In this document: in pieces, positions 1,512 through 34,049 of the stretch | How positions within the stretch are numbered: position 1 is the first letter of the stretch | Layout of the letters: every line of letters begins with the position of its first letter | Virus record (IMG/VR): IMGVR_UViG_3300042197_003290 | Coordinates: 1-34,298 of that record | DNA length: 34,298 bases | Source of the DNA: a virus | Reading direction: 5' to 3' (one strand) | Translations under genes and position numbers: made by a program | Notes under the pieces: model-generated | The model's database searches: none | Told to the model about the DNA's origin: nothing | Seen by the model: the letters and a program-made list of their open reading frames with translations, nothing else

Positions 1512-2182
1512 TGCACGTCTGCGGCTATTGTCAGCGGTCCTTTGCTAGGAGCGCCAGTCTTGACGTGCATGTGTGTGAACAGAAACGCAGACACAGCGAG
1601 CGAGACGAGGCCGGGGTGCGTATTGGATTCAATGCTTGGTTGAGATTTTATGAAATTACCCAAGGCAGCAGCCGTCTCCGCACCTGGGATGAGTTTACTA
1701 AATCGTCTTATTATAAGGCATTCGTAAAATTTGGTCGGTATTGTGTCAACACTAGAGTAATCAACCCCCAACAATTCCTGGAATGGCTGCTGCAACACAA
1801 TAAAAAAATTGATCGCTGGGCCAGTGATCAGGTCTATACTGAATATCTTGTTCAGTATCTAGTTGTGGAAAATGTTAGTGATGCCTTGGCCCGAGCCATG
1901 GAGTTTGGTATTGATTGGGCCACGCAACATATAGCGCCGGCACATGACTGCTTGCGTTTTGGCAGTGTATCAGCCATGTGCCAAGCCTTGGTTTGTGGTC
2001 GGATATCTCCCTGGGTAATTTACAACTGTGAGTCGGGACAAAAATTTTTGCACCAACTATCCAGCGAGCAAATTGCAATGATCTGGCCCTACATTGATTC
2101 TGATCGATGGCAAAAACGTTTTGCTGATTATCCCGCAGACCAAGAGTACGCTCGGGATATCTTAAAGAAAGCAGGCTGGTAA
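1511..2182 (+). CDS. N-terminal C2HC zinc-finger protein, unknown function
   Basis: A 223-aa protein with a short metal-binding module at the N terminus: C4-x2-C7-x12-H20-x-C22. The remainder is helical and rich in Trp and Tyr, with segments such as FVKFGRYC, SDQVYTEYLV, CGRISPWVIYNC and a C-terminal YARDILKKAGW. It looks like a conserved phage family but no function is known to me. The ATG at 1511 overlaps the upstream stop (TAATG); an in-frame ATG at 1490 lies inside the oxygenase gene and would add seven unrelated residues. The zinc finger suggests DNA, RNA or protein binding. Its place in an operon with the clamp-loader subunit suggests a replication or late-transcription role, which is inference. 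Confidence 0.8.
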   Translation: MHVCGYCQRSFARSASLDVHVCEQKRRHSERDEAGVRIGFNAWLRFYEITQGSSRLRTWDEFTKSSYYKAFVKFGRYCVNTRVINPQQFLEWLLQHNKKIDRWASDQVYTEYLVQYLVVENVSDALARAMEFGIDWATQHIAPAHDCLRFGSVSAMCQALVCGRISPWVIYNCESGQKFLHQLSSEQIAMIWPYIDSDRWQKRFADYPADQEYARDILKKAGW

Positions 2183-3132
2183 TGTCAACTCTTATCATTG
2201 GCAGTCATTGGGAATCCACGTCCGAGTATTATAAAAAAATAGATCTTGCAGCCAGCGTATTGATTGAATCATGCGATCAAATATTTGATGTTGGTCATAC
2301 CTCGGTACCAGACATGCTTGGCTATCAAAATCTTGAGTTGATAGCAAGCAAAGCCACAGATATCTATTGGGCCGAGTGCGGTATTGAGGAATTTGAGACA
2401 TTTGATGATTATCTAGATTTAGTTTTTTGGCTGAAAGATTTTAACCGGCGATATCAAACTGTTAGGAATTTTGCATCAGTCACAGTTGATCCCTACGGTA
2501 TCAAAGAGACATATAAGCCTTCCCTGGAGCAAGCGGTGTTTTTTGGATGCAGCTTTACCGCAGGTACCGGATTGTCAGACCCCACAACGCACTATAGCAA
2601 TATATTGAGCAATTATTTTCGCAAAGAAGTTTATAATCTTGCTCGAGGGGGCGGCAGTAATGATTTAATCTTCAATAGATTTGTCAACACCCAATGGAAT
2701 CCTGAACAACTGGTAGTGGTACAACTAACCATGCCCTATAGACTCTATTATTGTAGCGATGATTATCAAAAACTCAACATAATATTGGGCAGCGACAACA
2801 AACATCTCGGAGATAAAATCTTACAACAATCGCTGGTAGAAGTTTATCAGAAACCCTGGGTATTCTCCCAACTGTTAGACAAAGTCAATGCCATGAATCA
2901 GATTGCTGAGCAAAAAAAGTTAAGAATGGCTTTGTGGCTAGTAGATTACAAAAATCCAGACATTTATAGTTTGCATGATCAAACTTATTTCTATCATATG
3001 AAATCATTTGTGCCTGCCTCTCTTATGCAGAACTATCTAGTGGATTTTGCAGAAGATAATTTGCATCCAGGAATCCGTTCCAATAAAATTATCGCTGATG
3101 TTTTACACAAGTTCATTCATGAAGTATATTGA
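2182..3132 (+). CDS. SGNH/GDSL-type hydrolase-like protein
   Basis: A 316-aa protein with SGNH-hydrolase blocks: FFGCSFTAGTGL with nucleophile candidate S124, ARGGGSND around residues 154-161 with N160 in the block III position, and D292-N-L-H295 near the C terminus as the D-x-x-H dyad. SGNH enzymes remove acyl groups from sugars or lipids; in phages they may edit host surface glycans. The first 115 residues precede the hydrolase core and have no recognised domain. It begins in a TAATG overlap with the zinc-finger gene and ends the first operon. The gene is AT-rich compared with the replication genes: the 60-base line from 2221 has 21 G+C. That suggests separate acquisition. There is no signal peptide, so it acts in the cytoplasm or on the virion. 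Two further SGNH-type genes occur in the window. Confidence 0.8.
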   Translation: MSTLIIGSHWESTSEYYKKIDLAASVLIESCDQIFDVGHTSVPDMLGYQNLELIASKATDIYWAECGIEEFETFDDYLDLVFWLKDFNRRYQTVRNFASVTVDPYGIKETYKPSLEQAVFFGCSFTAGTGLSDPTTHYSNILSNYFRKEVYNLARGGGSNDLIFNRFVNTQWNPEQLVVVQLTMPYRLYYCSDDYQKLNIILGSDNKHLGDKILQQSLVEVYQKPWVFSQLLDKVNAMNQIAEQKKLRMALWLVDYKNPDIYSLHDQTYFYHMKSFVPASLMQNYLVDFAEDNLHPGIRSNKIIADVLHKFIHEVY

Positions 3133-3144
3133 GCCAGTCAATGG

Positions 3145-3173
3145 TTGACTTAGGTAACTGATACAGGTATAAT
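3145..3173 (+). promoter_or_regulatory. sigma70-type promoter, predicted leaderless
   Basis: TTGACT (3145-3150), a 17-nt spacer and TATAAT (3168-3173). The ATG of the mini-DnaE gene is at 3180, exactly 6 nt beyond the -10 box, so the predicted transcription start is the start codon itself. No Shine-Dalgarno sequence lies in the six intervening bases. Confidence 0.85.
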
Positions 3174-3179
3174 TGTCGT

Positions 3180-3737
3180 ATGAGTGCAGACATTGATATT
3201 GATCTAGCAGATAGAAATCCTGTGCTGGGATTGATCAAACATGTGGCTGCTAGACTGCCCAATGACCGCAAGCACAATTCTGGCATCTACGTCACTGAAA
3301 TTCCACGAGATCCCGTGCATGACATGGCAGCCATCGACTACGAGCAAGCGGAACAACGCGGATATTTTAAAATTGACCTGTTAAACATGACAGTGTATCA
3401 AAGCATACGCAGTTCTGAGCATTACCAACAACTATTGCGCACCGAGCCGCCCTGGGCCAGGCTTTGGCAAGATTCCAATTGGGCCAAAAATTTAGTTCAC
3501 GTTGGAGATTATACCCAATTGTTGTCCGACATGCGGCCGGATTCAATACCAAAAATGGCAGCATTCATATCTGTGATACGTCCGGGCAAAAGCCACTTAC
3601 AGAATCGTAGCTGGTCTGAAGTATTTGCAGAAGTCTGGAACGGTGACAGCAGCCGTGGCTACATTTTCAAAAAAAGCCATGCTGTGAGCTACGCTGTGTT
3701 GGTAGCCCTGCATATGAACATTTTAAACGAGTCCTGA
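3180..3737 (+). CDS. miniature DnaE-like (Pol III alpha palm) protein
   Basis: A 185-aa protein that reads as a condensed bacterial DNA polymerase III alpha subunit. ADIDIDLADR (residues 3-12) matches the PDxDxDF catalytic loop, giving D6 and D8. KHNSGIYVTEIP corresponds to the THAAGVVI strand. GYFKIDLLN supplies the third aspartate, D66. SVIRPG (131-136) resembles LFRPG, and FKKSHAVSYAV (163-173) matches the conserved KSHA segment near the end of the fingers. The PHP, thumb, most of the fingers, the clamp-binding tail and the OB domain are all missing; DnaE proteins usually exceed 1000 aa. All three metal-binding aspartates survive, so this is not obviously a dead fragment. It has its own promoter. 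Possible roles are a minimal polymerase, a polymerase accessory factor or a nucleotidyltransferase; none is shown. DnaE relatedness is quite sure, function is not. Confidence 0.82.
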   Translation: MSADIDIDLADRNPVLGLIKHVAARLPNDRKHNSGIYVTEIPRDPVHDMAAIDYEQAEQRGYFKIDLLNMTVYQSIRSSEHYQQLLRTEPPWARLWQDSNWAKNLVHVGDYTQLLSDMRPDSIPKMAAFISVIRPGKSHLQNRSWSEVFAEVWNGDSSRGYIFKKSHAVSYAVLVALHMNILNES

Positions 3738-4115
3738 TTAATCTACCCGGCGCACTAATGTAATGCTTTTGCGTTTGCTTTTTCTCTTGGCAATATCGCG
3801 CAGTGAACACACTGGACCGTGCAAGATCTCTAGATCTCGATTGTTGAACGTTCTAACATAAGAACGGAACGGCTGCCAATCCTCACGTAAAAATATGTTT
3901 ATGGGTATGCTGTGATTGCTTTCCCACCACCAGGTATTGCCTAGATCCAGGAACAGTTTTTTATGTTCTCGGTTTACTATACATCCGTAGTCATAGATCG
4001 TAGTGACATTGCTGTCACGATTTTGCACGATACCCACGTACTCAGTACCGGCATACAGACACAGTGTTATGAAAGGATACCTTTCAGTTAACACACGAAA
4101 CAAGTTTTCGCCCAT
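3738..4115 (-). CDS. conserved small phage protein of unknown function
   Basis: A 125-aa protein on the minus strand, with its stop codon immediately next to the stop of the mini-DnaE gene (tail to tail). It starts with MGENLFRVLTERYPF, contains LFLDLGNTWWWESN and PINIFLREDWQPF, and ends in a strongly basic tail (AKRKSKRKS, residues about 109-117). The basic tail could bind nucleic acid. No signal peptide or membrane segment is present. I recognise no named domain. The region just upstream of its ATG also carries the late-type promoter box of the divergent gene at 4137, so the two may share regulatory DNA. The codon use and length make a real gene likely, and the plus-strand frames across it are broken. 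Confidence 0.72.
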   Translation of the reverse strand: MGENLFRVLTERYPFITLCLYAGTEYVGIVQNRDSNVTTIYDYGCIVNREHKKLFLDLGNTWWWESNHSIPINIFLREDWQPFRSYVRTFNNRDLEILHGPVCSLRDIAKRKSKRKSITLVRRVD

Positions 4116-4136: not shown

Positions 4137-4913
4137 ATGTACGCAACCACTGCCTATTTATATCAACAAATCCAGACTGTGCTTTTGGTTGACATCACCG
4201 GGGCCTACTTTGACCGGAGATGGAAACCTGTGTACGCTAAAAATCTTAAACTCAATCTTGGGGTTGATAATGTTATTTTATTCCAATTTCAAAACCAAGA
4301 TCAAAAACCGGTCAATATCACCGGAGCAACATTTACCTTTCGCATCATAAGCCAAAACGGTGAAGACTTGTTGTTTGCTAAGGAGCTGGTACCATTAAGC
4401 TCCACTCTTGGCAGGGCCAAAGTCACTATCACAGCCGCGGAAAGCCTCCGTTTTCAGGCACAGCCAGCCAGCTGGAGCTTAGAAGTCAGTTCAGGAGTAT
4501 TGGATCAGGCAGTATTCACCGATGACTATGCCGGAGCTCGAGGAGTGATTGACATCGTGGACTCGGTGTTCCCAGCCTTCATGCCCAGCGAGGTTCTTAC
4601 CATACCCAGCCAGGCTCCGCAAAACAACGTGTTTTATACCAGCACAGTCAGCACCAATGGCAGTAGGCTAACTACATTCCAGCTAGATACCTTGGATCTC
4701 ACCGGCAACCTTTCAGTGGAAGGTGCCACAGTCGACGACAATGAGTGGTACATCATTCCCGTGGAGGATCTCAGCACCGGCAACACTGTCAGCGTGATAA
4801 GTTTCGCCAACGCCAACAGCCGCTTGGGCATCAATGTCGAGGGTTACCATCCCTTGATTCGCTTGGCCATACAACGACAGAGTGGTAACGTAGAAGCTAT
4901 TGTGTACCGATGA
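4137..4913 (+). CDS. baseplate-type structural protein with BppU-like N-terminal domain
   Basis: A 258-aa beta-rich protein. Residues about 35-75 (KNLKLNLGVDNVILFQFQNQ followed by DQKPVNITGATFTFRI) have the pattern of the BppU-type N-terminal domain of phage baseplate or receptor-binding proteins: a strand that binds the neighbouring subunit followed by an immunoglobulin-like sandwich. The C-terminal half is Ser/Thr/Asn-rich and ends in LIRLAIQRQSGNVEAIVYR. No enzymatic motif is seen. A late-type box at 4113-4120 supports virion function. Its stop overlaps the start of the downstream SGNH gene by 4 nt (ATGA), so the two are made together. A baseplate, neck or fibre-attachment role is inferred. 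Confidence 0.72.
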   Translation: MYATTAYLYQQIQTVLLVDITGAYFDRRWKPVYAKNLKLNLGVDNVILFQFQNQDQKPVNITGATFTFRIISQNGEDLLFAKELVPLSSTLGRAKVTITAAESLRFQAQPASWSLEVSSGVLDQAVFTDDYAGARGVIDIVDSVFPAFMPSEVLTIPSQAPQNNVFYTSTVSTNGSRLTTFQLDTLDLTGNLSVEGATVDDNEWYIIPVEDLSTGNTVSVISFANANSRLGINVEGYHPLIRLAIQRQSGNVEAIVYR

Positions 4914-5620
4914 AATTTGATCGCATAGTGGGGCTGGGCGACAGTTGGATGTTTGGCGACGAGATCGTGGATCCCGCGCTGGGCGACGTCCATGCAGTTG
5001 ACCCCAAAAATACTGCGTACCGAGAAAAACATTGCTTTTTGGGTCTGCTGGGACAGCATTACAACGTACCTGTTGACAATCTAGGATTTCCTGGTGGCTC
5101 GCCGCAAAGTTGTATCTACAACTATATCTGGTACACAGAAAATCAAATTTTGACTCCCGATACTCTGTTTTTAGTTGGCTTGCCTGACGCATCCAGGATG
5201 TCTTGGTTCGACCCACACCGTGTCAAGGGAGCCGATGATCAACCATTCAACAATTATCAACACAGTATATGGTTGCGCAATTATGAGAAGAAAAATTACA
5301 ATCAAAGCCCCAACGAAAAAATAGACGATTGGGCTACATTTTCCATGCTGTATGATGTTTTGACTTCCTGCCCCGATGCCTTTAGATTCAAATTCAAGCA
5401 AGCAGTGATGTTTTTTGAAGGGCAAAGTCATAGACACCCAGTGAGACAGTTTAATGTGCTTCCCCCGCCTTGCCTATATCCAACTGATTCTATGTTGTGG
5501 CCCGGTAACTGCCTTGCTGCCATGCTGGCCGCCGAAGATCTTAAGCCACGCAAGCATCCCAACGAGATTGGACATCAAAAACTGGCAAATCTCTTGATTT
5601 CGCAACTAGATATGCTATAA
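4910..5620 (+). CDS. SGNH/GDSL hydrolase-like protein
   Basis: A 236-aa protein opening directly with the SGNH block I: VGLGDSWMFGDE, nucleophile candidate S12. NLGFPGGSPQS gives the glycine/asparagine-region block, and the C-terminal KHPNEIGHQKLAN contains the expected histidine. The usual D-x-x-H aspartate is not at its standard position (Pro lies three residues before the His), so activity is less certain than for the SGNH genes at 2182 and 33094. The start overlaps the baseplate-like gene by 4 nt. Coupling to a structural gene suggests either a virion-associated deacylase or a modifier of a structural glycan, which is inference. The sigma70-type promoter of the primase gene is embedded in its last 27 bases. 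Confidence 0.75.
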   Translation: MKFDRIVGLGDSWMFGDEIVDPALGDVHAVDPKNTAYREKHCFLGLLGQHYNVPVDNLGFPGGSPQSCIYNYIWYTENQILTPDTLFLVGLPDASRMSWFDPHRVKGADDQPFNNYQHSIWLRNYEKKNYNQSPNEKIDDWATFSMLYDVLTSCPDAFRFKFKQAVMFFEGQSHRHPVRQFNVLPPPCLYPTDSMLWPGNCLAAMLAAEDLKPRKHPNEIGHQKLANLLISQLDML

Positions 5621-5621: not shown

Positions 5622-5627
5622 ATCTTG

Positions 5628-6605
5628 ATGCTTGATTTGATGCACTATCTGCCGGCTAAGAAAAAGTCCACGGCATCGGGGTGGATCAGCTTCAATGCTC
5701 CTTGTTGTCATCACCGCGGCGAAAGTGCAGATCGTCGTCTGCGAGGTGGTGTCAAGATTTCAGATCAAGGCTGGAGCTATCACTGTTTCAATTGTGGCTA
5801 CACTGCGAGTTTCGTCCTGGGACGCACATTGACCTTTAAGGCTCGTCAGTTACTGATTTGGTTAAATGTGCCCAGCGACGTTATCGAGCGGGTTAACTTA
5901 GAAAGCATGCGTCATCGAAGTGTGCAGGGCCTACTGGAATCCAGCAAACCCGACACCGCTAATGAGTCGGTGACATTTGATGCACGCCGCTTGCCCCTGG
6001 GGTTTGAACTAGTGGATTCCCATGCACATCCCGAACACTGGCAATATCTGCGCCGTCGGGCTGTGCCCATGGACTATCCCGTGGGCATGACACCAGATTC
6101 CGCAAGGCCCGGCGTGATAATACCTTTCACACATCAAGATGAAATCGTGGGATCATGTCAGCGATTCCTAGACAATCGCAATCCGCGCTACATCCATGAC
6201 ATACCATCAGGGTACGTATTTGGTGCGGATCTGCAAAAGCCCGAATGGCAGCATGTGCTGGTCATGGAAGGTGTGTTTGATGCCCTTAGTGTGTCGGGCA
6301 TGGCTGTGCTGCACGCCGACATCAATGATCGACAGGCACAATTGATCCGCGGGCTGGGCAAAAACATCACAGTGATTCCCGACCGTGACACGGCTGGTGT
6401 CAAGCTGATTGATCGTGCCCTTGAATTGGGCTGGGCTGTGAGTTTTCCTGAATGGCCCAGCCACTGCAAGGACGTTAACGACGCGGTACAAGAATTTGGA
6501 GTGCTGGTCACAGTGCTAACTATAATGCACTCACGCGAGACCAGTCGTATCAAAATAGAGATGGCAAAGAAACGATGGCAAAAGAACCTCAAAACAACAC
6601 AGTAA
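5628..6605 (+). CDS. 61: DNA primase, T4 gp61/DnaG-type
   Basis: A 325-aa primase that would make RNA primers for lagging-strand synthesis with the adjacent helicase. An N-terminal zinc-binding region has Cys/His ligands in NAPCCHHRG and YHCFNCGY (residues about 25-57). The TOPRIM core follows: VMEGVFDAL with the catalytic Glu, VIPDRDTAG with the Asp-x-Asp pair, and CKDVNDA. T4 gp61 is 342 aa, so the length fits. The ATG at 5628 is chosen because the promoter at 5594-5621 places transcription start there; an adjacent upstream TTG and a later ATG at 5640 are alternatives. Its 3' end overlaps the helicase gene by 31 nt, giving the usual phage primase-helicase pair in opposite order to none: primase first, helicase second. 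Confidence 0.9.
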   Translation: MLDLMHYLPAKKKSTASGWISFNAPCCHHRGESADRRLRGGVKISDQGWSYHCFNCGYTASFVLGRTLTFKARQLLIWLNVPSDVIERVNLESMRHRSVQGLLESSKPDTANESVTFDARRLPLGFELVDSHAHPEHWQYLRRRAVPMDYPVGMTPDSARPGVIIPFTHQDEIVGSCQRFLDNRNPRYIHDIPSGYVFGADLQKPEWQHVLVMEGVFDALSVSGMAVLHADINDRQAQLIRGLGKNITVIPDRDTAGVKLIDRALELGWAVSFPEWPSHCKDVNDAVQEFGVLVTVLTIMHSRETSRIKIEMAKKRWQKNLKTTQ

Positions 6606-8008
6606 TCAAAGACTACAACGTTGATGTACAACGTTTGTTTCTGGAAATGATGATGGAGGATGCACAGAGCTATGTTCGTGTGCAGAACATTTTCAATCCT
6701 GAAAACTTTGATAGATCCCTGCGTCCTGCAGCAGAGTTCATGCGACAACACGCTGATGAATTCAAGACCCTGCCGGACCGAGCACAGGTAGCTGCTGCTG
6801 CGCGAGTAAAACTGCAGCCCATACCCGACCTCAACGAAGGACACTTTGAGTGGTTCCTGAATGAGTTTGAAAACTTTACGCGGCGACAGGAACTGGAGCG
6901 AGCCATTCTCAAGAGCGCAGATCTCTTGGAGAAAGGACAGTACGATCCCGTAGAAAAGCTCATCAAGGACGCAGTGCAGATCAGCCTGACACGAGACATG
7001 GGCACAGACTACTTTGCTGATCCGCGACAGCGATTGATGGCCTTGAAGAACAACAACGGTCAAAACTCAACAGGATGGCCCAATCTTGACAAGCTGTTGT
7101 ACGGCGGATTCAATCGCGGCGAACTCCAGATCTTTGCAGGCGGGTCGGGATCGGGCAAGAGCTTGTTCATGCAAAATCTTGCTGTGAACTGGATACAGGC
7201 CGGGCTCAATGGCGTGTACATCACGCTAGAGCTCAGCGAGGGACTCACGGCCATGCGCATTGACAGCATGCTGACCAATACAGCCAGCCGCCAGATCTTC
7301 AAAGACATTGACACCGTAGAGATGAAGATCAAGATGATGGGCAAAAAGTCCGGGCAGATGCGCATCAAATACATGCCAGCACAGAGCACAGTAAATGACA
7401 TACGCGCCTATCTCAAGGAACTGCAGATACAAACTGGACTCAAGGCAGACTTCATGTGTGTTGATTATCTAGATCTCTTGATGCCGGTGTCGGCCAAGGT
7501 ATCGCCCAATGACCTGTTTGTCAAGGACAAGTATGTGAGTGAGGAGCTGCGCAATCTAGCGCGTGAGCTCAACATATTGTTTGTGACAGCATCGCAGTTG
7601 AATCGTGCTGCCGTGGAAGAGATTGAGTTTGATCACAGCCACATATCAGGCGGTATATCCAAGATCAACACCGCTGACAACGTGTTTGGTATCTTTACCA
7701 GCAGAGCCATGCGCGAGCGCGGACGTTATCAGTTACAGCTTATGAAAACACGCAGCAGTTCGGGTGTGGGACAAAAGGTTGAACTAGAGTTTGATATTGA
7801 AAGTTTGCGCATACGCGATCTCGCGGAAGATCAAGAGTACCAAGACTTCAAGAAGCGAGCACCCAGCATCTATGAAAGCATCAAGGCTACTAGCCGCATC
7901 AAAGAAGTCGAGGACAACGCCACGGTGCCCGATGAGCCCGGCAAGATATCAGCCGAAGTGCAGAGCACCAAGCTCAAGCAGTTACTGGGACAAATCAGAC
8001 AGTCATGA
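6575..8008 (+). CDS. 41: replicative DNA helicase, DnaB/T4 gp41-type
   Basis: A 477-aa hexameric 5'-3' helicase of the DnaB/RecA fold. The N-terminal helical domain (about 1-145) is followed by the ATPase: Walker A GGSGSGKS at 189-196, the downstream YITLELSEG strand, a Walker B aspartate in FMCVDYLDLL, SQLNRAAV as the sensor-like H3/H4 region, and LMKTRSSSGVG with an arginine-finger-like segment. The length matches T4 gp41 (475 aa). The ATG at 6575 lies inside the primase gene (31-nt overlap), so the products are co-made. It would unwind DNA at the fork and recruit the primase. No intein or insertion disrupts the motor motifs. Confidence 0.95.
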   Translation: MAKEPQNNTVIKDYNVDVQRLFLEMMMEDAQSYVRVQNIFNPENFDRSLRPAAEFMRQHADEFKTLPDRAQVAAAARVKLQPIPDLNEGHFEWFLNEFENFTRRQELERAILKSADLLEKGQYDPVEKLIKDAVQISLTRDMGTDYFADPRQRLMALKNNNGQNSTGWPNLDKLLYGGFNRGELQIFAGGSGSGKSLFMQNLAVNWIQAGLNGVYITLELSEGLTAMRIDSMLTNTASRQIFKDIDTVEMKIKMMGKKSGQMRIKYMPAQSTVNDIRAYLKELQIQTGLKADFMCVDYLDLLMPVSAKVSPNDLFVKDKYVSEELRNLARELNILFVTASQLNRAAVEEIEFDHSHISGGISKINTADNVFGIFTSRAMRERGRYQLQLMKTRSSSGVGQKVELEFDIESLRIRDLAEDQEYQDFKKRAPSIYESIKATSRIKEVEDNATVPDEPGKISAEVQSTKLKQLLGQIRQS

Positions 8009-8033: not shown

Positions 8034-8861
8034 ATGATACCCAAAGATCGATATCTTATAGATTTTTGGACAGGCTCGCACGGAAATTTTTTAGAATATG
8101 TGATCAACTGTTGGATTTTTGGCGTACCAAAAACCAATCATCTTTTTACTCATACCGGTGCTAGTCATAGAGCAAAAGCCGATAAAAATTATCGGGAAAA
8201 ATCTATAATAGTTTGTGGTCATTACAGTGAGTACAATCTTATGGTATTGTTGCCGCCTGAAAAACTCATCAGAATAGTCATTGAAGATCTTGTGGGTGCT
8301 TGTTGTTATCAAATAAACATTGCTTGCAGAGCAGGCGATTTGTCAAAAGAGGACCAAGAACGTGCCAGCATACCCTTGCATGTTCGCCAGCATCCGAATC
8401 TGTTACGAGGCAACTATTTTGCCAAACTTGCAGACATAGAACACGCTTATGAGATGCCTAATCGGTGGAGATTTCAGGACATATCGAGCCTAGAAGTCAA
8501 CATGAGTTGTTTATATGATTTTTTTTCGTTCCTGAGCACGATGAAAAAAATAGCTGATTTTCTTGAACAAAAATTTACTCCAGATTGCGAGCTGATTGAT
8601 CTGTGGACAGAATTCATGGCGCGGAATCAAGGTTGGCAGGCATGGACCATGTGCAATAGTGTGCTCATGGATTCAATCGCAGACCGCGATCGAGACATCG
8701 ATCTCAATATTCAGCAACAGGCATTGTTGAATTTTTTGCTGTCTAAGGCAATAGGTATTTTTGACGGCGATTTGTTTGATCGACCCGACTATCCCTGTAA
8801 CACAAAACAGATCTATAAACTAATAAAAATGCATCTAGACACATTTGATTCTAGATTTTGA
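8034..8861 (+). CDS. putative P-loop/sulfotransferase-like protein
   Basis: A 275-aa protein with an N-terminal IDFWTGSHGNFLEYVIN (residues 9-25). The TGSHGNF motif sits where sulfotransferases have their phosphate-binding loop, after a short beta strand and before a helix. A protein at 30075 has a matching PGSAGNF. A second strand, SIIVCGHYSEYNL, and VVRIV-like LIRIVIED follow, which also fits that fold. The rest has no recognised motif. The gene is AT-rich relative to the helicase before it and has no visible Shine-Dalgarno sequence. It ends overlapping the tail of the minus-strand DnaE gene by 11 nt. A role in transferring a group to a sugar or other acceptor is speculative. Confidence 0.6.
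   Translation: MIPKDRYLIDFWTGSHGNFLEYVINCWIFGVPKTNHLFTHTGASHRAKADKNYREKSIIVCGHYSEYNLMVLLPPEKLIRIVIEDLVGACCYQINIACRAGDLSKEDQERASIPLHVRQHPNLLRGNYFAKLADIEHAYEMPNRWRFQDISSLEVNMSCLYDFFSFLSTMKKIADFLEQKFTPDCELIDLWTEFMARNQGWQAWTMCNSVLMDSIADRDRDIDLNIQQQALLNFLLSKAIGIFDGDLFDRPDYPCNTKQIYKLIKMHLDTFDSRF
8833..8859. terminator. weak bidirectional terminator candidate
   Basis: ATCTAG (8833-8838) pairs with CTAGAT (8851-8856), and a short T run follows on the plus strand. It sits where two convergent genes meet. The 6-bp AU-rich stem is weak, so this is only a candidate. Confidence 0.3.
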
Positions 8862-10551
8862 GATGTTGATCGATTGTCATTGATCGTACATTAGCACGAT
8901 TTACCTGCAGAAACTGGCTACCATCACGGCTTCTTAATTCCCCTTGTCCTGCGATCACGGATCCTGAGTTATACTTGATTGGTTTGTCCACAATGAGATC
9001 TACATATTCACCCTCTCCTACCCCTAGAGTGATAAAATGGATACATTGTTTACGATCTCTTCGGAACACCCTTGAGTTGGCCACTATGCCGGCAAACTCG
9101 AATCTGTCAAGATAGAGATTCCTTACACCCATGCCCGGCAGGAACCCTGGGGAGTTCCAGGCACCATGTTCCAGGAATGACTCCACGGGATCTTCTGTGA
9201 TCCAGTTGTCAAAGCCTAGGTCTCGCAGATCCCAGCCTGCTCGCTTGGCTTCGTTGCGATAGACCCAGCGGGCATAACTGCCTTGGCAGTGCAACAGCGC
9301 AGCACGCCAAAACTCTCGTGGATTGTGTGCTTTGTGATAGGCCAAGGCCCAGATCAGGCGCCCCAGATTCACAGCATGCGCACGGCACAGGCCAAAACCT
9401 GCCAAGCTCTGCATCTCCTGGCGTATCTGTTCTCGCTGTGGATGGTTGCCTAGACGTGCCATGAACTCCATGACCTTTTCTTCGTTGCGCTTGGCAAATG
9501 CGCGCCGATACATATCGGCTTCATAGGCGTTCACAGAAATCAACTTCATGATCTTTTCTATGGCATCGTCTTCGCACACTATGGCCGAATCCTGCACGGT
9601 CTTCTGTGTCCAGTCATGGAAGAACGATGCTTTCTTGCGTCCCTCTACCGCCACGGGACGCACCAAGGCCGTGGCAAACACACAATCATGCACTGAAGTA
9701 GGGTGTATAGCGCGGAACAGCCGGCGCATGGCCGGAGATTCGCCCTGCGTGACACCCAAGACATCTCCGCGGCTCAGCAGATCTGCTGTGGCTTCGTCGG
9801 TGTGAGGATATTCATGTACCCCGCGCGTGGGATCAATCTCCATGAGCTGGCTGAGTCCACGATTGGCCAGGATGTCTACCTTGAGGTGTTCAAGATCCTC
9901 TACTTCGTTCTTGTCCAGCAATATAAGATTATCGTCGCGGAACAGGCTCTGGGGCAATTTGCGATCAAACACAATGACCCCTCCGCAGTGTTTGCTGAGA
10001 CAGCGTTTCTTGCCAATGAGTTTGCGTTCAATGCGCTGGGCTTCTTCAACATCAATGCCCAGCTTTTTGTAGTCTATGTCCTTGGGCAAGCGACCTCGCA
10101 CCCCAAGACGCTTGGCAGCCTCTCGCCTGGCTGACTTTTCCTTGTACATAACATAGTTGCTGATGCGAGCGGTCTTGCCCGGCCATGCGTCAAAGATTCT
10201 CTGCATGGCCAGCTCTTGCTGGTGATGTGGCACGTCGATGTCCACGTCGGGCAAATCATCGCGGAAGGGATTCAAGAAGCGTGCCAGAGGTATGTTCCAT
10301 TCAATAGGGTCTACATCTGTTATCGCCATGAGATAGCACACCAGGCTGGAGCCTGCGGATCCGCGCGTCATGTGTGGTATGTCACTGTTGAGATCCAGCA
10401 CCCTGCGTATCTTGAGAAAGTAGTCCGTGAAACGTTGATTTATGATGATGCCAAATTCTTCCACCAGTCGCTGCTGGTATCGCTCATCCTGGGGACAGGG
10501 CCTGCGGAATTCGGCCATGATACTCTCGATCTGTTCTAGTTCAGTTGCCAT
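8851..10551 (-). CDS. dnaE: DnaE-type DNA polymerase III alpha core lacking PHP domain
   Basis: A 566-aa protein matching the polymerase part of bacterial Pol III alpha. RGSAGSSL (63-70) corresponds to GRGSAAGSL; LPDVDIDVPH gives catalytic D104 and D106; KHCGGVIVF (187-195) matches the THAAGVVI strand; HLKVDILANRGL gives the third aspartate, D226. LCRAHAVNLG (388-397) replaces the KSHAxxY segment, and YHKAHNPREFW follows as in DnaE. The C-terminal 90 residues look like an OB fold ending in LQVNRANVRSM. The N-terminal PHP exonuclease-like domain (about 270 aa in E. coli) is absent, so no intrinsic proofreading is visible. It is probably a phage replicase or a specialised polymerase. The gene runs against its neighbours, and its ATG is preceded by AAGG with a 7-nt spacing. 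Confidence 0.88.
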   Translation of the reverse strand: MATELEQIESIMAEFRRPCPQDERYQQRLVEEFGIIINQRFTDYFLKIRRVLDLNSDIPHMTRGSAGSSLVCYLMAITDVDPIEWNIPLARFLNPFRDDLPDVDIDVPHHQQELAMQRIFDAWPGKTARISNYVMYKEKSARREAAKRLGVRGRLPKDIDYKKLGIDVEEAQRIERKLIGKKRCLSKHCGGVIVFDRKLPQSLFRDDNLILLDKNEVEDLEHLKVDILANRGLSQLMEIDPTRGVHEYPHTDEATADLLSRGDVLGVTQGESPAMRRLFRAIHPTSVHDCVFATALVRPVAVEGRKKASFFHDWTQKTVQDSAIVCEDDAIEKIMKLISVNAYEADMYRRAFAKRNEEKVMEFMARLGNHPQREQIRQEMQSLAGFGLCRAHAVNLGRLIWALAYHKAHNPREFWRAALLHCQGSYARWVYRNEAKRAGWDLRDLGFDNWITEDPVESFLEHGAWNSPGFLPGMGVRNLYLDRFEFAGIVANSRVFRRDRKQCIHFITLGVGEGEYVDLIVDKPIKYNSGSVIAGQGELRSRDGSQFLQVNRANVRSMTIDQHLKI

Positions 10552-14394: not shown

Positions 14395-14877
14395 ATGGCT
14401 ACTTTTTATCCATTTAATGGTGATGCGCAACCAGTATTTGCGCTTGACGTAAACAACGGTCCTCAGACCGGCAACATCGGCAGCACCGACGCATTGGTGC
14501 AGATGCAGGGTCCCAAGCTGGACTTCTTCAAGGTCGTGGTCGAAAACGGTTCAAACCAAGCGGTTGACCTCCGCGCTGAGCTGGGTGTTTACAGCGCAGG
14601 CGTGTTTGATCCAGGTCTGGTCACTGTGTTGAACCAGAGCATCCAGCAGACTGCCACCATTGCAATGTATCAGGTGGAAGGCGACGCTACGGGACAGATC
14701 AGCTACGGTCTTTATCCGCAGGGAGCCTACACCGCTGCCACACTGCAGGCCCAATTGCGCGCCATCCAGAACGGTTCAACCGCTGGCAACGTGCAGGTCT
14801 ACAGCAGCGATGGCACAGTGACTGGTTTTGATGTCACTGGTACTGACGTCACACAGCCTGGTTTCAAGCTGGCTTAA
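14395..14877 (+). CDS. probable abundant late structural protein, unknown identity
   Basis: A 160-aa acidic protein rich in Gly, Ala, Val, Thr and Gln, with no cysteine and only a few basic residues, and with a beta-strand pattern (FFKVVVENGSNQAVDLRAEL, IQQTATIAMYQVEG, GNVQVYSSDGTVTGFDVTG). No named family is recognised. It stands alone as a transcription unit: late-type box, short 5' hairpin, strong ribosome-binding site ATAGGAG 8 nt before the ATG, and a classic terminator 28 nt after the stop. Its codons look GC-rich and regular. Together these point to high late expression of a virion component such as a decoration, tail or fibre-associated protein. The specific role cannot be told from sequence. 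Confidence 0.8.
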   Translation: MATFYPFNGDAQPVFALDVNNGPQTGNIGSTDALVQMQGPKLDFFKVVVENGSNQAVDLRAELGVYSAGVFDPGLVTVLNQSIQQTATIAMYQVEGDATGQISYGLYPQGAYTAATLQAQLRAIQNGSTAGNVQVYSSDGTVTGFDVTGTDVTQPGFKLA

Positions 14878-14904
14878 TTGCCGCTCGCCACATAGGTTGG
14901 AGAG

Positions 14905-14930
14905 AGCCCGGTTTCTATACCGGGCTTTTT
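14905..14930 (+). terminator. rho-independent terminator
   Basis: AGCCCGGT (14905-14912), a 6-nt loop and ACCGGGCT (14919-14926) make a perfect 8-bp GC-rich stem followed by a T run. It ends the isolated unit of the 160-aa protein. Confidence 0.92.
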
Positions 14931-14939
14931 CTTGGGGGT

Positions 14940-14945
14940 TAAATA
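14940..14945 (+). promoter_or_regulatory. late-type TAAATA box, near-leaderless
   Basis: TTAAATA lies directly after the terminator and ends 5 nt before the ATG at 14951. No ribosome-binding site is present. The spacing is identical to that at 12134-12145. Confidence 0.5.
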
Positions 14946-14950
14946 CCCAC

Positions 14951-15586
14951 ATGGAAACTATCCCCCTTTGGCCCATACTGACCTTTCGTTTTGATTGGCC
15001 GGAACACAGTTTTTATCAACCTGCTCTGAAACGAGTCTGCGATGACTTGAACAAAACCAAACACACCAGTCACATCGCTGATGGCAGCAAACATGGTCTC
15101 TATGAAAGTCCGTTCAATTTTGCACACAACAATGACCCTGCTGTCAGTGCCTGGGCTGACTGGACAAAAAAATGTGTGTTCGAAGCTGCCAAGACGGCTT
15201 CGGGATCTGAGTGGCCTCCGGGTATCAATCTAATGCTGGAGCTACACGAGTCTTGGTGCCATGTCACTGACAACGGAGGATTCCATGATCGGCACATGCA
15301 TCCCAACAGTTGCTGGAGCGGCATTTATTATCTAGACTGCGCAGACATGAAACCCGGCACCATAAATGGTGTCAACAGATTCTATCGTCCCTGGGACACT
15401 GCCTACATAGATGCCGGTACAGTGTGGACCCGTAACAACTACATCGACATACAGCCCAATGCTGGCATGTTGTTTCTTTTCCCCAGCTGGATAGATCACA
15501 GCGCACTGCCTTATTTCGGAACACGTCAGCGCTATGTCCTAAGCTTTAATTGTCAAATCAAACTGATCAAGCCAGCTGATGCCTGA
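14951..15586 (+). CDS. 2-oxoglutarate/Fe(II) oxygenase, 2OG-FeII_Oxy_5 type
   Basis: A 211-aa oxygenase of the group typified by SGxYYL and FPSWxxH motifs. FHDRHMHPNSCWSGIYYL (111-128) holds the first metal histidines (H115/H117), LFLFPSWIDHSALPY supplies the distal H183, and R194 in RQRYVLSFN is the likely 2-oxoglutarate ligand. The substrate is unknown; phage members may hydroxylate proteins or sugars. The open frame extends upstream through the terminator, but the ATG at 14951, after the TAAATA box, is the sensible start. The stop overlaps the next ATG (TGATG). It is a different subfamily from the oxygenase at 1005-1511. Confidence 0.88.
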   Translation: METIPLWPILTFRFDWPEHSFYQPALKRVCDDLNKTKHTSHIADGSKHGLYESPFNFAHNNDPAVSAWADWTKKCVFEAAKTASGSEWPPGINLMLELHESWCHVTDNGGFHDRHMHPNSCWSGIYYLDCADMKPGTINGVNRFYRPWDTAYIDAGTVWTRNNYIDIQPNAGMLFLFPSWIDHSALPYFGTRQRYVLSFNCQIKLIKPADA

Positions 15587-20572: not shown

Positions 20573-21000
20573 TGTGGCCTTTGTTTTTTGAAGAGCGTCT
20601 CCGCCAGTGGCATGATGTGAGATCAAGCCTAAGCAGTAACATCGGTGCCGACCAATTATTGACTGTGAATCAATGGTGGTGGCGCGCACCCATGGTAAAT
20701 TACAGTCTGCACTGGAGCGACGTAAACAGCTGGCCCTTGCCGTGGGAACTACTGACCTTTGACGGATATTGTAATATATCTAGAGCACTGGGCATGGTAT
20801 ATACACTCGCACTGGCAGCACCCTTGCTGCGCGACAAGATTGTAATGCTGCATGGACATGAAGCCACGTTGGTCATGATCACAGGACTTGATTATGTCAT
20901 GAACTGGGATCCTTCCGCTGTGGAACCGATTGATCTGGCGGAGTTCAGCTTGATTGGCACGCTGGCTTGTAGTAAAATTCTTGACTGGAAAAACATATGA
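20572..21000 (+). CDS. unknown protein between tail spike and nrdA
   Basis: A 142-aa protein with a Trp-rich middle: LTVNQWWWRAPMVNYSLHWS followed by WPLPWELL. Later comes a helical segment, ALGMVYTLALAAPLLRD, and a C-terminal DWKNI. It has no recognised domain. It starts in a TGATG overlap with the tail-spike gene and ends in an ATGA overlap with nrdA, so it is translated as part of the run joining the two. The TTG one codon upstream is an unlikely alternative start. The long hydrophobic helix is broken by charged residues and is probably not a membrane segment. Confidence 0.75.
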   Translation: MWPLFFEERLRQWHDVRSSLSSNIGADQLLTVNQWWWRAPMVNYSLHWSDVNSWPLPWELLTFDGYCNISRALGMVYTLALAAPLLRDKIVMLHGHEATLVMITGLDYVMNWDPSAVEPIDLAEFSLIGTLACSKILDWKNI

Positions 21001-23297
21001 ATCAGATATACGTAGAAAAAAGAAATGGCAGCCGTGAGCTGCTGGACATAGAAAAACTGCATCGTGTGGTATTTTGGGCCACACAAGACATCACTGGAGT
21101 CAGCGCCAGTGAAGTTGAGATCAAGAGTCATCTGCAATTTTACAACGGTATAAAATCCACAGACATTCAGGAAACCTTGATTAAAAGCGCTGCTGACTTG
21201 ATCTCAGAAGAAACACCCAACTATCAATATGTGGCGGGTCGCTTGATCTGTTATCATTTGCGCAAACAGGTGTATGGAGATTTCAAGCCTTGGCATGTGC
21301 TAGACTTGGTGCGACAAAATGTCGCTGCTGGTTTCTATGACGAGGAGCTGCTGTCAGCCTACAGCGCCGAAGAGTGGGATCGCATCAATGGTTTCATCAA
21401 GCATGAGCGTGATGAAGAACTGACCTACGCGGCCATGGAGCAGTTCCGTGGCAAGTACCTGGTACAGAATCGTGTGACCAAAGACATCTACGAAACACCA
21501 CAAGTGGCTTATGCGCTGATCGCGGCCACGCTGTTCAGCAATTATCCCCGTGAATCAAGACTGAGCTGGGTCAAAGACTACTATGATGCCATCTCCACGC
21601 ACCAGATCTCGCTGCCCACACCTGTCATGGCCGGAGTGCGCACACCCATGCGCCAGTTCTCCAGTTGTGTGCTGATCGAGACCGATGACAGTCTGGACAG
21701 CATCAACGCCACGGCCAGCAGCATCGTGAAATACGTGAGCCAAAAGGCTGGCATTGGCATTGGCGCAGGTCGCATCCGCGCCATCAAGTCACCCATACGC
21801 AACGGTGATGCCTACCACACCGGTGTGATACCTTTCTATAAGTTGTTCCAGGCCGCCACACGCTCCTGCAGCCAAGGCGGCGTGCGCAATGGTGCTGCCA
21901 CACTGTACTATCCCATATGGCATCTTGAAGTTGAAGATCTCTTGGTCTTGAAAAACAACAAAGGCACTGAAGACAATCGAGTGCGCCACATGGACTATGG
22001 CGTGCAGTTCAACAAAGTCATGTACGAACGGCTCTTGGCCAACGGCGACATCACGTTGTTCTCACCACACGATGTTCCGGAAATGTATGAAGCATTCTTC
22101 TCTGACGTGGATCGCTTTCGCGAGCTCTACGAAAAGGCCGAGCGCAACACCAAACTGCGCAAGAAGACCATCAAGGCCGTGGAACTGTTTACACGTTTCA
22201 TGCAGGAGCGCAAGGACACTGGACGCATCTATCTCATGAACGTGGACCATGCCAACAGCCATGGATCATTCCGCCCTGAAGTCGCGCCCATACATCAAAG
22301 CAATCTCTGTTGCGAGATCGACTTGCCCACACGACCGCTCAACAGTGTAGACGATGATCAAGGTGAGATCGCACTCTGCACACTCAGTGCCATTAACTGG
22401 GGTGCGTTCCGCAATCCCGAAGACATGGAGCGTGCCTGCACCTTGGCAGTGCGTGGTCTTGACGCGCTGTTGAGCTATCAGAATTATCCCATCCTAGCTG
22501 CACGTCTGGCCACAGAAAATCGTAGACCCTTGGGCGTGGGCATCATCAACTTGGCCTATTGGCTGGCCAAGAACGACTTCAGCTACAGCGATCCTGCCTG
22601 TTTGCCCGAACTGGATCGTTGGGCACAGCACTGGAGCTACTATCTGATACGTGCATCCGTGGATCTGGCTCGCGAATTTGGCGCATGCCCCCGGAGCTCA
22701 GACACCAAGTATCATTCGGGCATTTTGCCGGTGGACACCTACAAGCGCGAAGTGGACGAGCTGGTGCCGCATCAGGATCATGTGGACTGGCAGAGCCTGC
22801 GTGAAGCCTTGCGCGAGCATGGCATACGTAATTCCACGCTCATGGCTCTGATGCCAGCAGAAACATCGGCCCAGATCTCCAATGCCACCAATGGTGTGGA
22901 GCCGCCGCGCAGTTATGTCAGCATCAAGCAGAGCAAGGACGGTGTGCTGAAACAAGTGGTTCCAGAATATCGCAGGCTCAAGAACAAATATGAACTGCTG
23001 TGGGATCAACGCAGCCCCGAAGGTTATCTGCGCATCATGGCAGTGCTGCAGAAGTACATTGACCAAGGTATCTCGGTCAACACCAGTTACAATCCGCAGC
23101 ACTACGAAGAAGAAAAGATACCCATGAGCGATATGTTGCGTCACTTAGTGATGTTCTATAAGTACGGCGGCAAGCAACTGTATTACTTCAACACCTATGA
23201 TGGCTCTGGTGAAATCGACATTGATCGCTTTGTGCCTGCCAGCAAAGAGACATCAGACTCCGACAGTGCAGATGACTGCGACAGTTGCAAGATTTAG
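20997..23297 (+). CDS. nrdA: ribonucleoside-diphosphate reductase alpha subunit, class Ia
   Basis: A 766-aa large subunit that reduces ribonucleoside diphosphates to deoxy forms in the cytoplasm. An N-terminal ATP-cone (residues about 3-90, IYVEKRNGSRELLD) is followed by the ten-stranded barrel. The active site is intact: C224 in FSSCVL, N436/C438/E440 in SNLCCEI and C461 in ALCTLSA, matching E. coli C225, N437/C439/E441 and C462. The radical-transfer tyrosines are Y728-Y729 in LYYFNT. The C-terminal CDSC (761-764) is the shuttle disulfide re-reduced by glutaredoxin, which is encoded downstream. Length equals that of E. coli NrdA and no intein or intron is present. The order nrdA-nrdB-grx forms a complete self-contained dNTP supply cassette. 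Confidence 0.97.
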   Translation: MNQIYVEKRNGSRELLDIEKLHRVVFWATQDITGVSASEVEIKSHLQFYNGIKSTDIQETLIKSAADLISEETPNYQYVAGRLICYHLRKQVYGDFKPWHVLDLVRQNVAAGFYDEELLSAYSAEEWDRINGFIKHERDEELTYAAMEQFRGKYLVQNRVTKDIYETPQVAYALIAATLFSNYPRESRLSWVKDYYDAISTHQISLPTPVMAGVRTPMRQFSSCVLIETDDSLDSINATASSIVKYVSQKAGIGIGAGRIRAIKSPIRNGDAYHTGVIPFYKLFQAATRSCSQGGVRNGAATLYYPIWHLEVEDLLVLKNNKGTEDNRVRHMDYGVQFNKVMYERLLANGDITLFSPHDVPEMYEAFFSDVDRFRELYEKAERNTKLRKKTIKAVELFTRFMQERKDTGRIYLMNVDHANSHGSFRPEVAPIHQSNLCCEIDLPTRPLNSVDDDQGEIALCTLSAINWGAFRNPEDMERACTLAVRGLDALLSYQNYPILAARLATENRRPLGVGIINLAYWLAKNDFSYSDPACLPELDRWAQHWSYYLIRASVDLAREFGACPRSSDTKYHSGILPVDTYKREVDELVPHQDHVDWQSLREALREHGIRNSTLMALMPAETSAQISNATNGVEPPRSYVSIKQSKDGVLKQVVPEYRRLKNKYELLWDQRSPEGYLRIMAVLQKYIDQGISVNTSYNPQHYEEEKIPMSDMLRHLVMFYKYGGKQLYYFNTYDGSGEIDIDRFVPASKETSDSDSADDCDSCKI

Positions 23298-23306
23298 GCT
23301 ACACAC

Positions 23307-24431
23307 ATGACAGTTTTAAACCTAGCACATCGCGATCATACCAAATGTCTGGCTTTCCTGGATCCAGGTGGCACCATTGGCATGCAGAGATTCGATACCT
23401 TGAAGTATCGCCAGTTTGACAAGCTCACTGACAAACAACTGGGCTTTTTCTGGCGGCCAGAAGAAGTAGACGTGCTGCGCGATGCCAAGGACTTCCGAGA
23501 CCTCACTGTACACGAACAACATATCTTTACCAGCAACTTGAAAAGACAGATCCTGCTGGATTCAGTGCAGGGTCGATCACCGGCCTTGGCACTGCTGCCC
23601 CTGTGTACGCTTCCCGAATTAGAAACATTTATCGTGACCTGGACCTTCAGCGAGACCATACACAGTCGCAGCTACACTCACATCATACGCAACATCTATC
23701 CTGATCCGGCACGTGTGTTTGATGAGATGTTGGAGGTGCAGGAGATCATACAATGCGCTCAGGACATCACCAAATATTACGATGATCTAGTTGCCTACAG
23801 CAATCTGTATCAGAGCCTGGGTTTTGGCCGTCACACTGTCAAGGGTGAGAGCATTGACATCACGCCACGTGAACTCAAGCGCAAATTGTGGTTGGCCCTG
23901 ACATCAGTGAACGCGCTGGAAGGCATCCGTTTTTATGTGAGCTTTGCCTGCAGCTGGGCCTTTGCCGAGCTGAAGAAGATGGAAGGCAATGCCAAGATCA
24001 TCAAGTTTATTGCTCGTGATGAAAACGTGCATCTGGCATTCACGCAACAGATCATGAAACTGCTGCCACAGGACGATCCTGAATTTGCTGATATCCGACA
24101 GGAAAGCCAAGACACCATGATGGAAATCTATCGCGGCGCCATACAACAAGAAAAAGATTGGGCACGATATCTTTTCCGTGACGGCAGCATGATTGGACTC
24201 AATGAACAATTGCTGTGCGACTATGTTGACTGGATCGGCAACAAGCGCATGACAGCAGTGGGATTGCCTACAGGGCCGCGTGGCGGCAGCAATCCCCTGC
24301 CCTGGACACAAAAATGGATCGCGGGTGCCGATGTACAAGTGGCACCTCAAGAAACTGAAATCAGCAGCTATGTGGTGGGTGGCACCAAACAAGATGTTGA
24401 TTCCAACACACTGGCAGGACTATCATTATGA
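23307..24431 (+). CDS. nrdB: ribonucleoside-diphosphate reductase beta subunit, class Ia
   Basis: A 374-aa radical-generating subunit. The diiron ligands and radical site are visible: D85 in LLDSVQGR, E116 and H119 in FSETIHSRSYTH with the tyrosyl-radical residue Y123, then the Glu of NALEGIRFY and the Glu/His pair of ARDENVH. This matches class Ia NrdB rather than the Tyr-less class Ic form. The length matches E. coli NrdB (376 aa). It pairs with the NrdA directly upstream (9-nt gap). The stop overlaps the glutaredoxin start (ATGA), so the reductant is co-translated. Confidence 0.97.
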   Translation: MTVLNLAHRDHTKCLAFLDPGGTIGMQRFDTLKYRQFDKLTDKQLGFFWRPEEVDVLRDAKDFRDLTVHEQHIFTSNLKRQILLDSVQGRSPALALLPLCTLPELETFIVTWTFSETIHSRSYTHIIRNIYPDPARVFDEMLEVQEIIQCAQDITKYYDDLVAYSNLYQSLGFGRHTVKGESIDITPRELKRKLWLALTSVNALEGIRFYVSFACSWAFAELKKMEGNAKIIKFIARDENVHLAFTQQIMKLLPQDDPEFADIRQESQDTMMEIYRGAIQQEKDWARYLFRDGSMIGLNEQLLCDYVDWIGNKRMTAVGLPTGPRGGSNPLPWTQKWIAGADVQVAPQETEISSYVVGGTKQDVDSNTLAGLSL

Positions 24432-33990: not shown

Positions 33991-33997
33991 GGTAAGA

Positions 33998-34005
33998 TAT
34001 TTATA
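33998..34005 (-). promoter_or_regulatory. perfect T4-type late promoter box TATAAATA
   Basis: Read on the minus strand, TATAAATA ends 7 nt before the ATG at 33990. It is an exact match to the T4 late consensus. Transcription would begin at or near the start codon. Confidence 0.7.
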
Positions 34006-34049
34006 ACCCATGGATTATCTGGAGTTTTATTGTAGCATCTGATTTCAAT

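What the first reader, a model, noticed from the sequence alone, without database searches (positions are those of the whole stretch)
3180..3737. A 185-aa miniature DnaE keeping all three catalytic aspartates
The protein has the DxD loop (D6, D8), the third Asp (D66), the RPG motif and the KSHA segment of Pol III alpha in the right order, but has lost the PHP, thumb, most fingers, clamp-binding and OB parts. It has its own strong leaderless promoter and a conserved-looking sequence. This would be among the smallest C-family polymerase-like proteins and could represent a new minimal nucleotidyl-transferring enzyme or a regulator built from a polymerase palm.
Basis: partly seen in the sequence, partly recalled or inferred. 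Interest (0 to 1): 0.82.

Follow-up and report, generated by a model that had tools for sequence, protein, structure and literature searches.

The report
Half of a two-piece phage polymerase
The small protein is not a stand-alone mini-polymerase: it is one half of a DNA-copying enzyme that giant bacterial viruses make from two separately encoded pieces, something predicted in 2021 but, in the papers I could search, not yet tested at the bench.

Summary
The ORF (window 3180-3737, 185 aa) is real, under strong purifying selection and homologous to DNA polymerase III alpha. It belongs to PHROG_11778 and is present in 63 jumbo-phage records and hundreds of IMG/VR contigs. It is not a self-sufficient mini-DnaE. 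It starts exactly at the DxDxD strand and lacks the preceding Gly-Ser palm block that binds the dNTP triphosphate. That block is a second small protein (PHROG_11127), which ends a few residues before that strand. In AlphaFold models the two proteins tile bacterial DnaE end to end (E. coli alpha 279-395 and 399-778). All 15 large phage genomes checked that carry the mini carry one copy of each half, far apart, plus a family-B polymerase. Iyer et al. 2021 (PMC7824862) already described this split minimal Pol III alpha. All are invariant in 110 distinct homologues, as is the steric-gate His (H167). One point I did not find described: the window also encodes a 566-aa single-chain PHP-less DnaE, and two large relatives carry PolB, that DnaE and the split pair together.

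The parts
3180..3737 (+). C-terminal (metal-binding and finger) half of the split minimal DNA polymerase III alpha; 185 aa
   Evidence: PHROG_11778 E=1e-53; AlphaFold pLDDT 92.9, whole length superposes on Taq DnaE 460-835, Z 9.6; dN/dS 0.09
3189..3203 (+). D4-I-D6-I-D8: first two catalytic Asp (D4 = E. coli D401, D6 = D403) and the DnaE-conserved D405 equivalent (D8)
   Evidence: 110/110 distinct homologues; register and PMC3919608
3273..3284 (+). H32-N-S-G35, counterpart of the HCGG/HAGG palm segment; the thumb that normally lies between it and the DxD strand is missing
   Evidence: profile-profile alignment to the phage single-chain DnaE places RKHNSGIYV on KHCGGVLV; H32 and G35 110/110
3369..3377 (+). 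K64-I-D66: third catalytic Asp (D66 = E. coli D555)
   Evidence: 110/110 for K64 and D66; aligned to KVD of the phage single-chain DnaE
3579..3587 (+). R134-P135-G136, finger RPG motif (E. coli R639-P640-G641); R134 and P135 invariant
3666..3692 (+). F163-K-K-S-H167-A-V-S-Y171: O-helix with steric gate H167 (E. coli H760) and S166 (E. coli S759)
   Evidence: steric gate assignment in PMC8485763
3145..3173 (+). sigma-70 promoter-like site ending 6 nt before the ATG; could give a leaderless or near-leaderless transcript
   Evidence: lineage-limited
3738..4115 (-). phrog_11637 protein, convergent neighbour in the position of a minus-strand gene in RaK2, Phosso and Paride
5625..6605 (+). DNA primase (gp61-like), same position in relatives
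6575..8008 (+). DnaB-like replicative helicase (gp41-like), same position in relatives
8851..10551 (-). separate, complete single-chain PHP-less DnaE (566 aa): Gly-Ser block, DxDxD, fingers, OB-like C-terminus
   Evidence: PF07733 5.7e-40 and PF17657 1.5e-13; next to a mini in about 33 IMG/VR loci

Best explanation
The protein is the C-terminal subunit of a two-piece, minimal, phage-specific C-family DNA polymerase. SHOWN by sequence and prediction: it carries the metal-ligand strands (D4, D6, D66), the finger RP motif and the O-helix with the steric gate; a partner of about 170 aa, encoded far away, carries the Gly-Ser (RGSS) half of the palm; the two tile DnaE without overlap and occur together. 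INFERRED: they associate non-covalently (no intein-like sequence at the junction) to rebuild one palm active site. The partner would grip the dNTP triphosphate, this subunit would hold the two metals, template and sugar gate, and the complex would add dNTPs by the usual two-metal mechanism. With no thumb, PHP exonuclease or clamp-binding region, it should be distributive and non-proofreading. It would act beside the phage PolB, most likely in short-patch synthesis: extending primers made by the adjacent primase-helicase before hand-over (as DnaE hands over to PolC in Bacillus subtilis, from general knowledge), or gap and lesion synthesis. Estimated probabilities: two-subunit assembly 0.9; catalytically active 0.65; primer-extension role in particular 0.3.
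For: Homology: PHROG_11778 1e-53. Fold: model 1-185 on 3e0d 460-835 (Z 9.6, rmsd 3.8, 181 aligned), 5lew 418-806 (Z 9.6), 2hnh 399-778 (Z 8.5); first unrelated row Z 3.8. Partner: residues 79-175 on 5lew 307-415 (Z 12.0), 2hnh 279-395, 3e0d 308-457; first unrelated row Z 2.1; by sequence, profile 102-174 = E. coli 320-392. The break falls at the same place in every case: all 83 partners with the GRGSS motif end 33-42 residues from its start, and minis begin 3-16 residues before DxDxD. Co-occurrence: one copy of each half in 15 of 15 viral records of 176 kb or more that carry the mini, all with PolB; 63 phage records with each half, 59 of 60 listed shared. Active-site invariance 110/110. Context: C-half beside primase and helicase, N-half 3-4 genes from the clamp loader in RaK2, Paride and XacN1. 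Published description: PMC7824862.
Against: The window's own N-half is not in this 34-kb fragment; its presence is inferred from the two large relatives that also have the 566-aa DnaE. No complex was modelled and no coordinates were available to measure Asp-Asp distances. The first K of KSH (E. coli K758) is not strictly kept (K, R, H or Q at position 165), and a Lys (K137) stands where E. coli has the Pro of RPGP. The thumb is missing, which is unusual for an active polymerase. I found no biochemistry.
Confidence: 0.78

Rival explanations
1. The split pair is catalytically dead and serves as a structural or regulatory replisome factor, for example coupling PolB to the clamp loader or helicase, or binding DNA ends.
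For: No thumb, PHP or clamp-binding region; PolB is always present and could do bulk synthesis; K758 equivalent not strictly kept; the two halves sit beside clamp loader and primase-helicase genes.
Against: D4, D6, D8, K64, D66, R134, H167 and Y171 are invariant in 110 of 110 distinct sequences, from close relatives to cultured phages about 35-43% identical, and the partner keeps RGSS. A dead palm would be expected to lose some of these.
Confidence: 0.25
2. The 185-aa protein alone is a minimal nucleotidyltransferase or terminal transferase.
For: All metal ligands and the steric gate lie in one chain; the single-chain model is confident (pLDDT 92.9).
Against: The Gly-Ser strand and helix that bind the triphosphate lie in a partner that co-occurs one-to-one. 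The mini begins at the DxD strand, so the nucleotidyltransferase palm is incomplete.
Confidence: 0.05
3. In the window's lineage the mini works with the 566-aa single-chain DnaE (as an extra palm or fingers) rather than with the N-half.
For: The two genes lie within about 5-8 kb on opposite strands in about 33 IMG/VR loci.
Against: The 566-aa DnaE already has its own Gly-Ser block, DxDxD, K-x-D and fingers. It is absent from 36 other mini-bearing loci with 8 kb or more downstream and from all 13 first-surveyed large genomes with the mini. The two large relatives that have it also keep the N-half.
Confidence: 0.05

Closest known systems
Split minimal DNA polymerase III alpha of group 2.2 jumbo phages (Iyer et al. 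2021, PMC7824862)
   Same: Same architecture: an N-terminal NTP-binding protein and a C-terminal Mg2+/template-binding protein at distant loci, alongside PolB, in jumbo phages of the group that includes Atu_ph07.
   Different: This member belongs to an uncultivated lineage (up to 72% identity to IMG/VR relatives, about 29-43% to cultured phages) whose large genomes also carry a complete single-chain PHP-less DnaE.
Bacterial DnaE (Pol III alpha; E. coli 2hnh, Taq 3e0d, M. tuberculosis 5lew)
   Same: Palm and finger motifs, fold and order: DxDxD, HxxG, KxD, RPG, F-x-KSH-xxx-Y.
   Different: No PHP, thumb, Gly-Ser palm block in cis, beta-binding domain or OB domain; 185 residues aligned to about 380 of E. 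coli alpha.
Cyanobacterial DnaE split intein (from general knowledge)
   Same: A DnaE made from two separately encoded genes.
   Different: There the break lies near residue 774 and the halves are joined covalently by intein trans-splicing; here the break is just before the DxD strand and no intein sequence is present at either end.
Phage single-chain PHP-less DnaE (phrog_405, phrog_11165; LR756508.1, 35% identical to the window's 566-aa protein)
   Same: C-family polymerase core without PHP; the mini aligns to it over residues 27-137 (hhalign E 9e-5).
   Different: Single chain with thumb-region insert, full fingers and OB-like C-terminus.

Membership tests
C-family DNA polymerase (DnaE/PolC) alpha subunit, complete | Three catalytic Asp (E. 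coli D401, D403, D555) | tested here: met
   D4, D6, D66 invariant 110/110; register
C-family DNA polymerase (DnaE/PolC) alpha subunit, complete | Palm/finger fold of the C family | tested here: met
   1-185 superposes on DnaE and PolC, Z 6.2-9.6, against 3.8 or less for other rows
C-family DNA polymerase (DnaE/PolC) alpha subunit, complete | Gly-Ser (RGS) triphosphate-binding palm block in the same chain | tested here: not met
   Chain starts 3 residues before DxDxD; block is in the separate PHROG_11127 protein
C-family DNA polymerase (DnaE/PolC) alpha subunit, complete | PHP domain and (HhH)2/beta-binding region, nearly universal in bacterial members (PMC3919608) | tested here: not met
   No Pfam match; the model spans only E. 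coli 399-778
Split minimal Pol III alpha of group 2.2 jumbo phages (Iyer 2021) | C-terminal Mg2+/template-binding half as a separate protein | tested here: met
   PHROG_11778 1e-53; homologous to and syntenic with the RaK2, Phosso and Paride proteins
Split minimal Pol III alpha of group 2.2 jumbo phages (Iyer 2021) | N-terminal NTP-binding half in the same genome at a distant locus | tested here: inconclusive
   Not in the 34-kb fragment; present in 15 of 15 large genomes with the mini, including the two of the window's sub-lineage
Split minimal Pol III alpha of group 2.2 jumbo phages (Iyer 2021) | Accompanied by a family-B polymerase | tested here: inconclusive
   Not in the fragment; present in 15 of 15 large relatives
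Split minimal Pol III alpha of group 2.2 jumbo phages (Iyer 2021) | The two halves assemble into an active polymerase | not testable with these tools
Split-intein DnaE (cyanobacteria) | Intein halves at the N-half C-terminus and the C-half N-terminus | tested here: not met
   N-halves stop 33-42 residues from the start of GRGSS and minis have only 3-16 residues before DxDxD

The most novel reading that the evidence does not exclude
A working DNA polymerase whose single active site is divided within the palm itself between two freely encoded proteins of about 170 and 185 aa, used in giant phages that in this lineage run three DNA polymerases at once (PolB, a single-chain PHP-less DnaE and the split DnaE), each with its own task at the fork.
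Probability: 0.5. Interest if true: 0.75.

Novelty: new member of a known kind. Interest (0 to 1): 0.45.

Why it matters
If active, the pair would be about the smallest C-family polymerase core known, with the triphosphate grip and the metal site on different polypeptides. That makes a direct test possible of what a replicative polymerase minimally needs, and of the proposal (PMC7824862) that this form resembles an ancestral Pol III. It also gives a concrete reconstitution target, since both partners and their exact boundaries are now defined, and it corrects the tendency to annotate each half as a stand-alone DNA polymerase or 'putative membrane protein'.

Tried and rejected
Chance resemblance: rejected. 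Pseudogene or truncated fragment: rejected by full-length conservation, dN/dS 0.09 and 110 distinct homologues. Frameshift or assembly split of the neighbouring 566-aa DnaE: rejected, since that gene is complete and on the other strand. Disrupted mini in G057 ('1 TAA inside'): the TAA is the natural stop. Pfam alone gave nothing for the mini, and PDB sequence search gave only weak DnaE rows (E 0.03 to 0.7), so homology rests on PHROGs, structure and motif order. Absence of the N-half and PolB in 25 contigs of 16-75 kb with the 566-aa DnaE was uninformative because the halves lie far apart; two contigs over 300 kb settled it. Adjacent or fused N/C halves: none seen in the fetched flanks. A literature search for experimental work on the split enzyme found only Iyer 2021; subscription papers and preprints outside the library are not covered.

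Full report
OBSERVATION. The ORF at 3180-3737 encodes 185 aa from an ATG. It matches PHROG_11778 ('DNA polymerase', 197 positions) over its whole length at E=1e-53, and the KSHA segment matches phage DnaE families (phrog_405 2e-6). Pfam sees nothing. It is found in 63 annotated phage records (RaK2, 121Q, GAP32, PA5oct/Paride, Atu_ph07, Phosso, SCTP-2, XacN1 and relatives; 29-43% identity among those listed) and in more than 590 IMG/VR stretches at up to 72% identity. Pairs of close homologues have median dN/dS 0.09, so it is a functional gene.

RESIDUES. Over 110 distinct homologues the following are invariant: D4, D6, D8, H32, G35, K64, D66, R134, P135, K137, F163, K164, H167, Y171 and others. 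In E. coli alpha the chain reads P400-D401-F-D403-V-D405 (numbering from 2hqa), and D405 is the extra Asp conserved in all DnaE groups (PMC3919608). M. tuberculosis DnaE1 has PDIDIDFDDR against ADIDIDLADR here. So the catalytic pair is D4/D6 and D8 equals D405; the third ligand is D66. H167 equals E. coli H760, the proposed steric gate, and S166 equals S759 (PMC8485763).

WHAT IS MISSING, AND WHERE IT IS. The chain begins 3 residues before DxDxD, so the palm block with the RGS motif, which binds the triphosphate in C-family enzymes (general knowledge of the DnaE/PolC structures), is not there. A different phage family, PHROG_11127 (171 aa, also labelled DNA polymerase), supplies it: a profile of these proteins aligns positions 102-174 to E. 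coli alpha 320-392, and the family profile also hits control bacterial genomes, all of which have DnaE. All 83 such proteins carrying the GRGSS motif end 33-42 residues from the start of that motif.

STRUCTURE. AlphaFold2 with 53 sequences gives the mini at mean pLDDT 92.9, pTM 0.82. VIA-align places its whole length on Taq alpha 460-835 (Z 9.6, rmsd 3.8, 181 residues), M. tuberculosis DnaE1 418-806 (Z 9.6) and E. coli alpha 399-778 (Z 8.5). All rows above Z 3.8 are C-family polymerases. The N-half (175 aa, mean pLDDT 91.4) aligns over residues 79-175 to Taq 308-457, M. tuberculosis 307-415 and E. coli 279-395 (Z 7.4-12.0; first unrelated row Z 2.1). The two therefore tile the palm and fingers with only 2-3 residues between them in three reference structures. 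The first 78 residues of the N-half have no assigned fold here. Distances between the aspartates were not measured (no coordinates were available), so the shared metal site is inferred from the superposition.

CO-OCCURRENCE AND CONTEXT. All 13 first-surveyed large records carrying the mini (176-469 kb, including RaK2, Phosso and Paride) have one N-half, one C-half and a PolB. The two large contigs of the window's own sub-lineage (328 and 316 kb) have the same set. In the phage collection each half is found in 63 records; 59 of the 60 listed are shared, and one of the two exceptions is a 109-kb record, well below genome length for this group. The halves lie tens to hundreds of kb apart, with XacN1 the closest seen (about 15 kb). 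The C-half lies just upstream of primase and helicase (window 5625-8008), and the N-half lies 3-4 genes from the clamp loader in RaK2, Paride and XacN1.

PRIOR KNOWLEDGE. Iyer et al. [quoted passage not shown] RefSeq and recent submitters label both halves as DNA polymerase or DnaE-like. The finding is thus a member of a described family. I found no experimental test.

A SECOND C-FAMILY ENZYME NEXT DOOR. The window also encodes a complete single-chain PHP-less DnaE (8851-10551, minus strand; PF07733 and PF17657). It lies near a mini in about 33 IMG/VR loci and was not found in RaK2, Paride, Phosso or the other first-surveyed large genomes. In the two large relatives it co-exists with PolB and both split halves. 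So the window's phage probably has three DNA polymerases, two of them C-family.

MECHANISM. Best reading: a heterodimer whose palm is shared, N-half gripping the triphosphate, C-half holding metals, template and sugar gate; distributive because thumb and clamp-binding parts are missing; used for short synthesis beside PolB. Assembly is strongly supported by anatomy and co-occurrence, catalysis by invariance only, and the role in primer extension or repair is a guess from gene neighbours. A dead, scaffold-like pair remains the main rival.

PROMOTER. TTGACT-17-TATAAT at 3145-3173 is real and ends 6 nt before the ATG, compatible with a leaderless message. The same arrangement recurs in a few relatives (L009, L024), but it is not general, and many minis follow directly on the upstream gene. 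In the window a 316-aa gene (2182-3132) lies between the mini and the phrog_11058 gene, which may explain a local promoter.

Noticed in passing
8851-10551 (-): Complete single-chain PHP-less DnaE, distinct from the split one; with PolB and the split pair it makes three DNA polymerases in two large relatives (G056, G057).
   Followed up: yes
L094:9788-10312, first 78 residues: The N-half carries an N-terminal region of about 78 aa that aligned to no DnaE segment and no other fold in the second-look list; it may be a docking domain.
   Followed up: partly
2182-3132, 4910-5620, 33094-34011 (-): Three genes with SGNH/GDSL-like motifs by eye (GCSFTAG, GDSW, GDSY) and no PHROG match; two lie next to or near the mini and look like lineage-specific insertions.
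   Followed up: no
1005-1511 and 14828-15586: Both hit phrog_274, labelled 'DNA endonuclease V', but the second hits the 2OG-Fe(II) oxygenase family phrog_81 far more strongly, so the phrog_274 label looks doubtful.
   Followed up: no
LR756508.1 (484 kb uncultured phage): Has a 574-aa relative of the single-chain DnaE and PolB segments in two ORFs (1022 and 625 aa frames), but neither half of the split Pol III.
   Followed up: partly
phrog_7513 and phrog_13169: Two other phage families of about 460 aa match the Gly-Ser block of the 566-aa DnaE near their C-terminal ends, hinting at further DnaE splits at about the same place.
   Followed up: no
31355-32398 and 20997-24431: Radical SAM gene, and what reads as a ribonucleotide reductase large/small subunit pair (by eye; RaK2 has nrdA/nrdB near its mini as well).
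   Followed up: no
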